Under the pieces are notes generated by a model that had not been told where the DNA came from, made no database searches, and saw only the letters and a list, made by a program, of their open reading frames with translations. Position numbers and translations under genes: made by a program. Positions 1,088 to 13,476 of a stretch of DNA of 13,476 nt are shown one piece after another. The DNA is from an uncultured beta proteobacterium. Lineage in GTDB: Bacteria; Pseudomonadota; Gammaproteobacteria; Burkholderiales; Rhodocyclaceae. The stretch's first letter is position 1, and each line of letters begins with the position of its first letter. The stretch spans positions 1-13,476 of the forward strand of contig CAIVZW010000113.1 in assembly GCA_903910495.1 (NCBI GenBank), written 5' to 3'.

Positions 1088-3637
1088 CTAATGCGCAAGC
1101 TCGCCGCGAACAAATTGTTCCATCTCCGGCTTCAGTCGAGTCATCTCCAGAGACAGGGCGTTGGCCAGTTGTATGCAACGTTCCCAGTTAACGCCATCGC
1201 TCGCCCTGGCTGCATGCTCCAGATCAAGCGCGATTCGACGCGCCGTTTCGCCGTGGAAAATGGCCAGCAGGCTCTTGACCGTGTGTGCATCCATACAAAG
1301 TTGAGCGGCATTCCTGTCACTCAAATCGGCTTGAATCCGTGACAAATGCCCATCCCATTCATTGATCAGCATGCCGGCCATGGTCTGCAACAGATCACGA
1401 TCTCCCAGATCGCGCATTGCCGCACGCAGATCAAGCGAGGTATCAGTGATTGAGTGTGCAGACTCGGGCACTGCCGGATCCTCCGAACTGCTCTCCACAC
1501 CAAGACCCCGATCGATAGCCGCGTAAAACTCCTGCGGCTTGATCGGCTTGGATACGTAATCGTTCATTCCAGCCTGCAGACAGCGATCCCGATCCCCATC
1601 CATGGCATTGGCTGTCATGGCAATGATATAGACCTGCTTGAATTCCTGCGAGATCACCCAGCTCCGACGCATTTCACGCGAACGAATCGATTCGGCGGCT
1701 TCAATGCCGTCCATGACCGGCATCTGCATATCCATGAAAATAAGATCGAAATGGTGTTTCTCGAAGTAGTCCACCGCCTCGGCACCATTATTGGCCAAGG
1801 TGACGCGATAACCCCGTTTTGTCAGCAGGCGCTCGGCAAGTTCCTGATTTACCGGATTGTCCTCGACCAGCAATACTTCGAGTCGGTTTGTTTCATCAAC
1901 CTCAAGTCGTGCATCGAACTCGAAGGGAGCAAGCAGGTGATCCTGTTCCGCTTTCTGGCCTGATACAAGTTTCAATGCCTCAATCAGATCTTCGGGCGCA
2001 ACCGGCTTGACCAGATGGGCAGCAACGCCAAGTTCGCGCAGATGTTTCAGATTCTGACGCTGCTGCTCGGTATTGAGCAGCATGATCAGCTTCTCGGAAT
2101 GATTTCCGTCCGGCCACGATTCGGCCAGTGCCATTCCTCCTGGCGCCGGCATCTGTGCATCAACCAGCACAAAATCGTAAGGAAAGCCAAGATCATGGGA
2201 CTTCTTGAGCGCGTCAAGCGCCTCTTGGGTTTCGATAATATGCGTCGTCAGCAAACCGGTCTGAGCAAGAAAAGCCAATAATTGCGCCGCAACTGCCGGA
2301 TTGCTTTCAAGCAACAGGGCTCGCTGACTGCTGAACTGCTGATCCGGAAGAATGGCTACACTGCTTGCATCGATACCAAAGCGGCCGTTAAAGAAAAAGC
2401 AGGAACCCAGGCCTTCAGTACTCTCGAGCCAGACCCGCCCTCCCATCATCTGGGCCAGATGAGAACAGATCGTCAAACCCAGGCCGGTTCCACCAAAACG
2501 TCTTGTCGTCGAATCATCAACCTGGGAAAAGGCCTCGAAAATTGCCCCCTGCCGTGAAGCCGGAATACCAATCCCGGTATCCCGGACCGCAAAGCGGAGA
2601 GACACGGAAGAAGACGAGCGTTCCTCAAGCGAAACCTCAACCGAGATATCACCCCGATCGGTAAACTTGACCGCGTTTCCGACCAGGTTGGAGATCACCT
2701 GACGCAGGCGTGTCGGATCCCCCAGTACACGGGAAGGCACATCTGGCGCCAGCGAAACGATAACTTCCAGTTCTTTCTTATGCGCCGCCACCGCCTGGGT
2801 ACGAACCGCTTCAAAAACCAGACTGGATAGTGAAAAAGGAATCTCTTCGAAGTGCAACTTACCGGCTTCGATCTTCGAAAAATCGAGGATATCGTTAACA
2901 ATGGCCAGGAGTGATTCGGCGGATGACTTGACCGTCCTCAGATAGTGTCGCTGCTCGGCATCGAGTTGGGTATCGAGCGCCAGTTCGGTCATGCCGATAA
3001 TCCCGTTCATCGGCGTCCGTATCTCGTGACTCATATTGGCCATGAAATAGCTGCGCGCCCGATTGGCCGCCTCGGCCGATTCCTTGGCCGACAGCGCTTC
3101 CGCTTCAGACGATCTGAAACGGGTAATATCTCGCTGTAACAGCAAGAGTCGCACGGGTTCTCCGCCAGCATCACGGGCGACAACCAGACCCTTGAGGAAC
3201 AGCCACTTCCAGTGCCCGGCCTTGGTTTTCAGTCGGCATTCAGACTGGAAAGAACGGGATTGCCCCTGCACGTGACTGGCAATTGCCGTGTCAAAGGCCA
3301 GCAGATCTTCCGGCTGTACCAGGCGTCGCCAACCGGCGATGCTGTCATCCAGTTCGCCTTCGGCGAAGCCAAGCAGTGCTTTCCACTGTTTCCCCGAATC
3401 GATGCAGCCGCTTTTGAGGTTCCAGTTCGAAAAAGCATCCTCAGAGAGATCCGACTGGACCTGATGCACGCCGACAAGCTGGGCGATCACTCCATCCGTA
3501 ACTTCCAGCACTTTCGCCATTCCGTGCGCCAGATCCGGATGATCCTTTGCCGCAGCCATCAGCAACTGCTTGCATACTGTTTCACCGTCTCCGCCAAATA
3601 TCTCACGGAGTTTTCCGGCCAGCAGTGGGGATTTCAT
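1088..3637 (-). CDS. Soluble hybrid sensor histidine kinase (PAS-HisKA-HATPase-REC-REC-HPt)
   Basis: An 849-residue multi-step phosphorelay kinase of the BarA/ArcB tripartite type, but with no membrane segment or signal peptide, so probably cytoplasmic. In order: an N-terminal region of unknown fold (1-65), a PAS domain (about 68-172, ending in the typical [10 protein letters not shown]), a short coil, and a HisKA dimerisation domain with the phospho-acceptor His204 in [11 protein letters not shown]. The HATPase follows with the N box ([10 protein letters not shown], 317-326), DTGIGIP, the F box and GGTGLGL. The first receiver (about 438-555) has Asp493 and Lys544, but its acidic pair reads ES rather than ED/DD. 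The second receiver (about 587-710) is complete, with EDN, Asp636 and Lys697. An HPt domain carries His785 in AHTVKS. The start is the first Met after dapB and has only a weak Shine-Dalgarno; dapB ends 35 bp upstream. The signal and the partner regulator are unknown. Confidence 0.93.
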
Positions 3638-4957: not shown

Positions 4958-5085
4958 GCTTGGAAAATTTCTTGGTAAATAGTCGGAACTACGTTTTGAA
5001 ATGAAACCAGAGGGCTTAAAGCACTATCATGCGGTATATCATAACCGAAAATAATGACTTCTTTCTGCGTCAATATTGACAAGCT
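4958..5085. other. AT-rich intergenic region between bamE and the fur relic
   Basis: This 128-bp stretch is noticeably more AT-rich than the flanking genes and should hold the bamE promoter. TATGAT- and TTGACG-like hexamers occur on the minus strand but not at a convincing spacing. No good 19-bp Fur box and no small gene were found. An open minus-strand frame here (4954-5163) resembles nothing recognised and overlaps the fur relic, so it was not called. Confidence 0.4.
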
Positions 5086-5414
5086 TTGAGCAAAGCCACC
5101 GACTTGAAGAGCATGGGGCCAAAAGCCACGCACCTTCGCCTGTAGGAACTCGATTTTTGACAATGCCGTGGTACGCCAGCCCGAACCCCATCATTTCGAG
5201 TCAAACGAGGCCGTTTTCGAGATCAAAACCGGACACATCTGCTGTATATCGATTTTGGACGTGTTGAAGTGTGCTGCGACAAGGGAATCGAGCAGCGACA
5301 GAAAGGATCGCCAAGGGACCGGGTTTTGTCGTTCAGGAACAAACGCTCCACTTCTCCGCAGAAAGCTCCAAGGATGAACGCCCGCATCGCGGCAACCCTG
5401 AAATGCCCGACTGA
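5086..5414 (+). pseudogene. fur: Decayed ferric uptake regulator gene (fur relic)
   Basis: Fur is the iron-sensing repressor of iron-uptake genes. Four adjoining pieces align in order with Fur. Frame A, 5086-5157, reads (TTG)SKATDLKSMGPKAT, then HLRL, a TAG stop at 5143-5145, and ELDF, matching the Fur N-terminus (compare E. coli GLKVTLPRLKILEVL). Frame B, 5189-5236, reads HHFESNEAVFEIKTGH. Frame A returns at 5236-5306 with HLLYIDFGRVEVCCDKGIEQ then RQK. Frame C, 5307-5414, reads IAKGPGFVVQEQTLHFSAES and ends at TGA 5412-5414. Between the first two pieces about 100 bp is missing relative to E. coli Fur, which removes the DNA-recognition helix. Both cysteines of the zinc CxxC (ICLDCG in E. coli) are lost (LYIDFG), and most of the HHHDH metal-binding cluster is gone. 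It is divergent from bamE, the usual fur position. Multiple independent lesions make sequencing error unlikely. Confidence 0.88.
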
Positions 5415-6020
5415 TCAGGCAAAGGAATCCAGAAGCGCGCCCATCTGGGCGCTTCCACCGCCGCTTTGCTCGACACTCCGATACAAGCGGGTATTGCCCT
5501 GATCGGCATTTGCCGATTCTTCCCGCTGCTGCACGGCAACCGCTATCCGTGCCTCACCTTCCATACGGCTGGCCTGGGCTGCGACACTCTGATCCTGAGA
5601 GGAAGGGTCGACGGGGGCCAGGGCCGTGGCGCGAATATGCTGGGCCTTGGGAATGGTGTCTTCCGGCGTCCGGCCGGGAGACGTATCTATCGAAACTTCG
5701 CCGCCAACGGCATAGCGTTGATTGTCAGGCCCGATTTGATAGCTGTAGGACGGACCACCGCGCACCAGATCAGCGCCAACGGCAAGATGAGCCTGTTCAT
5801 GCGCACGGACTTTGCGGTCGATCTGCTTGAGTTCCTGAACCTGCTGCTGCTCATCAGCCGTCAATTCAGTGACCTGACCAGAATCAGAAGCTGAAGAAAG
5901 AACAGCGCGACCTGTTCGGGAACCCGAATCCACCTGCTTCAGACCCTGCTGGCTGATGCGGGAGAGGTTTTCAAAACCGGAACCCGTCTGGATCGTAGTG
6001 CTTGCTGTACTCTGAATCAT
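5415..6020 (-). CDS. SprA-related protein, putative metalloprotease (HEQAH motif)
   Basis: The 201-residue product resembles the SprA-related family of proteobacteria (Pfam SprA-related; sometimes labelled catalase- or metalloprotease-related), whose function is not established. The N-terminal 50 residues are Ser/Thr/Gln-rich and look disordered, and there is no signal peptide. A basic/acidic helix leads to RKVRAHEQAHLAVGADL, with an HExxH-like HEQAH at 74-78. The family block follows: GGPSYSYQIGPDNQRYAVGG, then EVSIDTSPGRTPEDT, then ALAPVDPSSQD (about 88-143). The C-terminus is low-complexity. Proteolysis is inferred only from the HEQAH motif. The stop codon directly abuts the end of the convergent fur relic. 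recN ends 83 bp upstream on the same strand. Confidence 0.85.
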   Translation of the reverse strand: MIQSTASTTIQTGSGFENLSRISQQGLKQVDSGSRTGRAVLSSASDSGQVTELTADEQQQVQELKQIDRKVRAHEQAHLAVGADLVRGGPSYSYQIGPDNQRYAVGGEVSIDTSPGRTPEDTIPKAQHIRATALAPVDPSSQDQSVAAQASRMEGEARIAVAVQQREESANADQGNTRLYRSVEQSGGGSAQMGALLDSFA

Positions 6021-8899: not shown

Positions 8900-9927
<1,028 letters not shown>

Positions 9928-12227: not shown

Positions 12228-13476
12228 TCAAGGCGGCGTGAGTTCCAGATCGCAGGCTGAGCTGCTGCCCTGTACCGCAGGTTGCCCCAACTTGGCGAGC
12301 GCCTTGTTGGCCCCGCGCAGGCGGCCCAGCACCTTGGATACCAGGGTCTTCTGGAATTGCTCCTGGACCTCATCCGAACTCAGCTCCAGTGCCGAACTGT
12401 TCACCTCGAGGAACAGGCAAGGTTCAAGGGTTACTACCGTTGCCGATCGCGTCGTATCCCGCGGATGAAGAAATGCCATTTCACCAACCACTTCACCGGC
12501 GCCAAGACGGCATACGGACTTGCCCTCTACCGAAACCTCGACAAAACCACTGACGAGGATGCCGAAGATACGATTATTGTCGCCCTCGCGTATCAAAATG
12601 ACCTTCTCTGACAGCTCACGCCAGACGCTGATGCGCAGGACTTCCCACAACTCGATGTCCTCGAACTCGGTGAAGAATTCCAGCTTGCGCAATCTGCTGA
12701 AATGCGACATGTCCTGCTGTGTCGAATCCTCGTCGAGCATCTGATACCTGACGGCCGAAAGATCCTTGGCAAACTCTGCTCCGTTGCGATAACGACTGTA
12801 TAGGTCCTTCTCCAGTGCCTTCTTCAGAATCGGATCGAGAGCAGCCGGCAGATTCGGATTGAGAGCGCACACCGAGGGGGTATCGGCATTGACGATCTTG
12901 TAGACCAGTGCGCCCTGATTATTGGCACGAAACGGAAGGCGCCCCGTCAGCAACTGGAACAACAGGACGCCCAGCGAATAAAGATCGGTTTTCTGGTTCA
13001 GCGGATAGTTCTTGATCTGCTCGGGCGACATGTACGCCGGCGAACCGACCCCCATGACGAAGGTCGAATCCTTGTTCATATCCTTGTGCAGATTCAGCGC
13101 CAGTCCAAAATCGGTGATCTTGGGATTGTCGTCCTTGTCGATCATGATGTTGGCCGGCTTGATGTCCCGGTGCACGACCCCTTGCCGGAAGGCATGGTCA
13201 AGCGCCAGACAGCACTTGAAGATGATGCCGATCACCCGATGCATGGGCAGCAGCTTGTTGATCGAGCAATACTGATCCAGAGCCGTGCCTTCGATGAACT
13301 CCATGACGATATAGGCGCGATCGGCTTCAATCACAGCATCGTACAGTTTAACGATATTGGGGTGATCCAGACGCCGGCCGATCGAACCCTCGGTCTGAAA
13401 AAGTTTGCGCAGCCGCCGAGACATGGCCGCGTTATCCTCGCCAAACAGAATCAGCTTGACTGCGACTTCACGATTC
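12228..13476 (-). CDS. Ser/Thr protein kinase with C-terminal cyclic-nucleotide-binding domain, 5' end beyond window
   Basis: The frame is open to the right edge. The first visible residues, NREVAVKLILFGEDNAA, contain the ATP-binding Lys (AVK, visible residue 7), so an internal Met at 13424 is not the start and the glycine-rich loop lies outside the window. 415 residues are visible. The Hanks-type kinase domain shows the alpha-C Glu in QTEGSIGRRLDHPNIVKLYD, the catalytic HRDIKPAN (about 102-109), ITDFGLAL (120-127), GSPAYMSPEQ and DLYSLGVLLFQLLTGRLPF. After a linker, a cNMP-binding domain (about 275-380) contains ILIREGDNNRIFGILVSGFV and the phosphate-binding-cassette-like VGEMAFLHPRDTTRSATV, with the Glu and Arg of that motif kept. 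No transmembrane segment is visible. It converges on the calcium-loop gene with a 10-bp gap. Confidence 0.93.
   Translation of the reverse strand, partial: NREVAVKLILFGEDNAAMSRRLRKLFQTEGSIGRRLDHPNIVKLYDAVIEADRAYIVMEFIEGTALDQYCSINKLLPMHRVIGIIFKCCLALDHAFRQGVVHRDIKPANIMIDKDDNPKITDFGLALNLHKDMNKDSTFVMGVGSPAYMSPEQIKNYPLNQKTDLYSLGVLLFQLLTGRLPFRANNQGALVYKIVNADTPSVCALNPNLPAALDPILKKALEKDLYSRYRNGAEFAKDLSAVRYQMLDEDSTQQDMSHFSRLRKLEFFTEFEDIELWEVLRISVWRELSEKVILIREGDNNRIFGILVSGFVEVSVEGKSVCRLGAGEVVGEMAFLHPRDTTRSATVVTLEPCLFLEVNSSALELSSDEVQEQFQKTLVSKVLGRLRGANKALAKLGQPAVQGSSSACDLELTPP

What the first reader, a model, noticed from the sequence alone, without database searches (positions are those of the whole stretch)
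5086..5414. fur is a pseudogene at its canonical locus divergent from bamE
Fur-like protein is readable in three frames in the right order, but with an in-frame TAG, at least three frame changes, about 100 bp lost across the recognition-helix region, and Cys-to-Tyr and Cys-to-Phe changes in the CxxC zinc site. Fur is normally retained in free-living proteobacteria, so its decay suggests replacement by another regulator, a second fur copy, or a lineage with relaxed iron control. Automatic callers would report hypothetical ORFs or an empty gap here.
Basis: partly seen in the sequence, partly recalled or inferred. Interest (0 to 1): 0.75.

Follow-up and report, generated by a model that had tools for sequence, protein, structure and literature searches.

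The report
Decayed iron regulator gene fur
An uncultured bacterium related to Propionivibrio carries only a rotted remnant of its master iron-control gene, fur, at the place where the relatives examined almost always keep a working copy, so it may be a natural case of life without this regulator.

Summary
Window 5086-5414 (+) is a 329-bp remnant of the 444-bp fur gene, divergent from bamE and abutting sprA, as in the nearest relative held (L001, intact 147-aa Fur). It has a TTG start, an in-frame TAG, deletions of 2, 102, 10 and 1 bp (three frame changes; recognition-helix and HHDH codons gone), and both Cys pairs lost. This is real decay, not sequencing error: differences from L001 are flat over codon positions (21/110, 20/110, 23/109), while ten intact neighbours show selection. 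At positions 1+2 fur has 32 window-derived against 2 L001-derived changes (30:3 by the neighbours' stricter rule); nine neighbours have 55:67. So the decay is specific to fur and about as old as the split from L001 (inference). Fur is otherwise usual here: open in 65 of 66 informative dapB-bamE loci; 25 of 28 genomes of the genus have one Fur over the cut-off, none two. Fur is missing from this locus in two other family genomes: G032 (no Fur-family protein found) and G332 (other Fur-family proteins present). The window's own genome is not held, so a second Fur is not excluded.

The parts
5086..5414 (+). fur remnant (pseudogene), 329 bp against 444 bp in L001
   Evidence: tblastn in three frames; alignment with eight intact fur genes
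5143..5145 (+). in-frame TAG in the N-terminal part
5178..5179 (+). junction of the 102-bp deletion that removed about 34 codons, including the stretch GLATVYR..TQFEQAG of L001 (recognition helix by recall)
5235..5236 (+). junction of the 10-bp deletion over the HHDH metal-site codons
5245..5256 (+). former first CxxC site, now Tyr-x-x-Phe
5364..5381 (+). former second Cys pair, now Ser and Arg
4958..5085 (.). bamE-fur divergent spacer; 17 of 128 bases differ from L001; block 5033-5043 invariant in the window and seven relatives, probably the bamE promoter
   Evidence: its core is also kept in fur-less L015
4481..4957 (-). bamE, intact neighbour
   Evidence: 73.6 bits to the BamE model, below its cut-off of 93; 92% to L001
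5415..6020 (-). SprA-related gene (PF12118), intact, abuts the fur remnant tail to tail
   Evidence: 88% to L001

Best explanation
The interval is a unitary pseudogene of the canonical ferric uptake regulator gene fur, in an uncultured Rhodocyclaceae bacterium close to Propionivibrio. The gene is intact in relatives, here has frameshifts, an in-frame stop and loss of the DNA-recognition and metal-binding codons, and shows no trace of purifying selection (shown). It probably lost function near the time this lineage split from L001 and has decayed freely since (inferred from the rates). The ten other genes tested in the window are open and under selection, so the loss is specific to fur within this stretch (shown). 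Most likely the cell has no canonical Fur, so its iron-uptake genes are either constitutively derepressed or under other regulators (inferred). The bamE promoter lies in the shared spacer and is kept for bamE (inferred).
For: Lesions. Open fur in the same position in L001 and in 65 of 66 informative loci, L001 included, out of 80. Flat codon-position differences of 21/110, 20/110 and 23/109 in fur, against 235 at positions 1+2 and 580 at position 3 in ten neighbours, Fisher p 3e-8. Window-derived to L001-derived changes at positions 1+2: fur 32:2 (any of seven relatives as outgroup) or 30:3 (L002, L005, L009 agreeing, as for the neighbours), nine neighbours 55:67; p 1e-7 and 1e-6. At columns invariant in seven relatives the window has changed 30 of 170; the same test on each of eight intact genes against the other seven gives 4-12 of 169-177. 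Ten neighbours open, dN 0.005-0.061, dS 0.20-0.35. No genome of 28 in the genus has two canonical Fur over the cut-off.
Against: The window's genome is not held, so absence of Fur from the cell is inferred, not seen. No reads could be checked. Window-derived change at fur positions 1+2 (32/220, 14.5%) is higher than half the neighbours' corrected 4-fold distance (0.191/2, about 9.6%), so neutrality at the 4-fold rate does not fully fit; small numbers, alignment near gaps and selection at synonymous sites may explain it. With L002 alone as outgroup the fur contrast is weaker, 32:5 (p 8e-6).
Confidence: 0.93

Rival explanations
1. fur is broken here, but a second intact Fur sits elsewhere in the genome (moved, duplicated or acquired), so iron control is kept.
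For: More than one Fur-family protein per genome is common; the nearest relative G001 has a second, Zur-like one, and one genome of the family has seven PF01475 matches. G332, which lacks fur beside bamE, has two other Fur-family proteins (88 and 30 bits).
Against: 25 of 28 genomes of the genus have exactly one match over the Fur cut-off, 3 of 28 have none (in one of these, G024, fur is split by contig ends) and none has two. G001's second member scores 34.6 bits to Zur (cut-off 167) and does not match NF006999 at E 0.01. The closest other Fur in the protein database (P0001, 95% to L001) has a longest contig of 2924 bases, the same as a BamE 88% like the window's (P0244), so it is most likely another species' canonical copy (inference).
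Confidence: 0.1
2. Sequencing or assembly error has broken an intact gene.
For: No genome is held for the window, which may be a metagenome record; frameshifts are typical errors.
Against: 64 substitutions over 329 columns, flat over codon positions, plus 102-bp and 10-bp deletions, in a contig whose ten other tested genes are open. The transition:transversion ratio in fur (40:24) does not differ from that at neighbours' 4-fold sites (182:147), p 0.34. Error does not remove both Cys pairs, HHDH and the recognition helix together.
Confidence: 0.02
3. The window comes from a genome in general decay (host-bound or very small population), and fur is one of many lost genes.
For: Loss of Fur is known from reduced genomes (recalled).
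Against: Ten neighbours have dN/dS of 0.02-0.24 against L001, and nine show no excess change on the window branch (55 against 67 at positions 1+2; 138 against 138 at position 3). Only fur is broken among the genes tested; the partial carA was not tested.
Confidence: 0.06

Closest known systems
Canonical proteobacterial Fur (NCBIfam NF006999/PRK09462; Pfam PF01475)
   Same: Same locus, orientation and order of segments; the remnant aligns over its whole length with intact Fur genes of relatives.
   Different: Frame broken three times, stop inside, recognition helix and metal-site residues lost; no Fur model matches any of the four overlapping ORFs tested.
Missing fur at the same locus in Rhodocyclaceae MAG CTSoil_117 (L015 = G032)
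   Same: No fur between bamE and recN while the bamE promoter core is kept; no PF01475 match in a 4.1-Mb assembly.
   Different: No remnant and a more distant lineage; an independent loss (inference). No DtxR-type match; two Rrf2 proteins present.
Fur of Nitrosomonas europaea (betaproteobacterium; PMC3050691)
   Same: Canonical Fur of a free-living betaproteobacterium.
   Different: There attempts at a fur knock-out failed and its loss is said to be possibly lethal; a promoter mutant was obtained (abstract and passages seen). Here the gene is lost in nature.

Membership tests
Functional canonical Fur | One open frame of about 145 aa matching PF01475 / NF006999 | tested here: not met
Functional canonical Fur | Winged-helix recognition helix (its place recalled) | tested here: not met
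   102-bp deletion
Functional canonical Fur | HHDH metal site and two Cys pairs | tested here: not met
   10-bp deletion and Cys to Tyr, Phe, Ser, Arg
fur pseudogene (unitary) | Homology to fur in syntenic position with intact orthologues in relatives | tested here: met
fur pseudogene (unitary) | Loss of purifying selection on the gene's own branch | tested here: met
fur pseudogene (unitary) | No intact functional copy elsewhere in the genome | not testable with these tools
   No genome held; base rate only

The most novel reading that the evidence does not exclude
A free-living betaproteobacterium has lived without any canonical Fur for about as long as it has been a separate lineage, with its former Fur regulon derepressed or rewired to other regulators; together with the losses at the same locus in G032 and G332 it would show that Rhodocyclaceae can repeatedly dispense with a regulator thought near-essential in some proteobacteria.
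Probability: 0.7. Interest if true: 0.5.

Novelty: new member of a known kind. Interest (0 to 1): 0.38.

Why it matters
Fur is the usual master switch of iron uptake in proteobacteria, and in some (Nitrosomonas europaea; also Pseudomonas aeruginosa, P. putida and the gonococcus as cited in PMC3050691, passages seen) attempts at null mutants failed. A natural, old and gene-specific loss, with a close intact relative and other losses in the same family, gives a comparison set for asking what becomes of a regulon when its repressor goes: Fur boxes in the lost lineages should decay, shift to another regulator, or stay for an unseen second Fur.

Tried and rejected
Tried and of little use. (1) Absence of Fur proteins for sister species in the protein database (the best 120 of each search are listed): one contig length (4812) recurs for a sister SprA (P0125) and BamE (P0243) with no Fur of that contig length listed, but clustering at 90% and incomplete contig counts (L001's own Fur is not listed either) make this no evidence. 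(2) Reading the 24 of 395 family genomes without a good Fur match (14 none, 10 with best E between 1.8e-12 and 1.3e-4, by my reading of the table) as losses: 17 of these 24 have no DapB match either, 6 of the other 7 seem to reach a contig end before fur (judged), and only G032 has the locus assembled without fur. (3) G105, 93% in part of DapB, as a close relative with the same loss: DNA identity is 74%, the bamE-side contig ends in dapB and the sprA-side contig begins in another gene, so fur is not seen. (4) G024 and G390 as split fur genes: the pieces of G024 lie at contig ends, and one piece of G390 does too. (5) A flag for broken fur in L026, L041, L052 came from the alignment running past the true stop; their genes are open. 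(6) RNA families in the window: none at gathering score. (7) A DtxR-type replacement: no match in G001, G008, G012, G032. (8) Papers: the ten searches listed no paper on a natural fur pseudogene in Rhodocyclaceae or Propionivibrio, as far as titles and starts of abstracts show; searches found no paper at all, and 'fur pseudogene' occurred in none of the 15 papers listed. This covers open-licence PMC papers only. PMC2851614 was looked at in passages and did not bear on the locus.

Full report
What is in the window. The window carries, on the - strand, carA (cut), a hybrid histidine kinase, dapB, bamE, an SprA-related gene, recN and nadK, then hrcA, hemH and an EF-hand gene on the + strand and a cut kinase/cNMP gene on the - strand (the names carA, recN, nadK, hrcA and hemH are my reading of the translations). 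No whole genome is held. A DapB scan of genome contigs kept the best 80 of 233 relatives. The nearest by full-length DapB identity is L001 (94%, MAG labelled Accumulibacter sp. bin_122), then eight loci at 85-87% labelled Propionivibrio, Accumulibacter or unclassified betaproteobacteria. L001 has the same gene order.

The observation. L001 has an intact 147-aa fur at the matching place (8966-9409), a canonical Fur by NCBIfam NF006999 (184.5 bits, cut-off 146). It hits the window at 5183-5411 in three frames. Alignment with eight intact fur genes of relatives shows the window remnant to be 5086-5414: TTG in place of ATG, in-frame TAG, deletions of 2, 102, 10 and 1 bp. The 102-bp deletion takes the stretch that holds the DNA-recognition helix (position of the helix recalled); the 10-bp deletion takes the HHDH codons; both Cys pairs are changed.

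Real decay, not error. In fur the differences from L001 are 21/110, 20/110 and 23/109 by codon position; in ten intact neighbours they are 235 at positions 1+2 and 580 at position 3 (Fisher p 3e-8). With seven relatives as outgroups, fur has 32 window-derived and 2 L001-derived changes at positions 1+2 of 220 sites, with 7 left ambiguous. Nine neighbours have 55 and 67 of 6275 sites, and 138 and 138 at position 3 (the EF-hand gene and carA were not used; five genes had L002 as the only outgroup, four had L002, L005 and L009, which had to agree). The neighbours' stricter rule applied to fur gives 30:3 of 185 sites, and L002 alone gives 32:5 of 220; the contrast stays (p 1e-6 and 8e-6). Of 170 columns invariant in seven relatives the window has changed 30, while each of eight intact genes changed 4-12 of 169-177 in the like test. 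The neighbours' pooled 4-fold difference is 0.169 and fur's overall difference 0.195. So fur has been free of selection for about the whole time since the split from L001 (inference). It has changed somewhat faster than half the 4-fold distance predicts, which I cannot fully explain. Mutation type does not set it apart.

How usual is fur here. Of the 80 loci, 66 have bamE just before dapB with at least 620 bp beyond it; 65 of these have an open fur divergent from bamE and one, L015, has none (three loci first flagged as broken proved open). The 14 left out lack a bamE hit, have it elsewhere or are cut. In the family of G001, 381 of 395 genomes have a Fur-family match. Of 24 without a good one, only G032 (L015) has the locus assembled without fur, and 17 of 24 have no DapB match. 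G332, whose best Fur-family match is weak for a canonical Fur (88 bits), has more than 1 kb assembled beyond bamE with no Fur hit; an aminotransferase-like frame (my reading) lies there instead, and two Fur-family proteins lie on other contigs. The other genomes of the 395 were not checked at the locus, apart from those behind the loci named here. In the genus, 25 of 28 genomes have one Fur over the cut-off, G024 has its fur split by contig ends, and G009 and G026 have neither a canonical Fur nor a DapB match. No genome of the genus has two. G032 has no Fur-family match in a 4.1-Mb assembly; its completeness is not told. The stretch of about 110 bp between recN and bamE there keeps the TATGATATA core found in the bamE-fur spacer of the window and seven relatives, so that core most likely serves bamE.

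What it means. The best reading is a unitary fur pseudogene and, most likely, a cell without canonical Fur. A Zur-like paralogue is present in G001 (far below the Zur cut-off) and may be kept. In G032 no DtxR-type match was found and two Rrf2-family proteins were, so no obvious replacement shows. In Nitrosomonas europaea attempts at a fur knock-out failed, while a promoter mutant grew like the wild type at 0.2 and 10 uM iron, poorly at 500 uM and not above (PMC3050691; abstract and passages). A life at steady, moderate iron would fit loss, but this is inference.

Limits. Whether Fur is missing from the whole genome is not tested. Kinship rests on DapB and the neighbouring genes; 'free-living' rests on the ordinary selection seen in ten genes and on named relatives. 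Database contig counts are not complete and were not used as evidence of loss.

Noticed in passing
L015 9390-9520: No fur between recN and bamE in a Rhodocyclaceae MAG (CTSoil_117) whose genome (G032) shows no Fur-family match; probably an independent loss.
   Followed up: partly
L116 2749-3804 (G332): No fur beside bamE in this family genome; an aminotransferase-like frame lies there, and two divergent Fur-family proteins are on other contigs.
   Followed up: partly
window 5033-5043: GGTATATCATA block invariant in the bamE-fur spacer of the window and seven relatives, its core kept on the bamE strand in fur-less L015; likely overlapping divergent promoters.
   Followed up: partly
window 1088-3637: The hybrid histidine kinase gene between dapB and carA is missing in some relatives (for instance L003, L010, L012).
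   Followed up: no
window 5415-6020: The SprA-related gene (PF12118) is found near fur and recN in 11 of the 45 loci shown and evolves fast (88% to L001 while DapB is 94%).
   Followed up: no
window 12228-13475: Ser/Thr kinase joined to a cyclic-nucleotide-binding domain, 98.6% identical to L001, next to the EF-hand gene.
   Followed up: no
G001: The nearest relative's genome shows no Rrf2-family (IscR-type) match over the cut-off; it may be incomplete.
   Followed up: no
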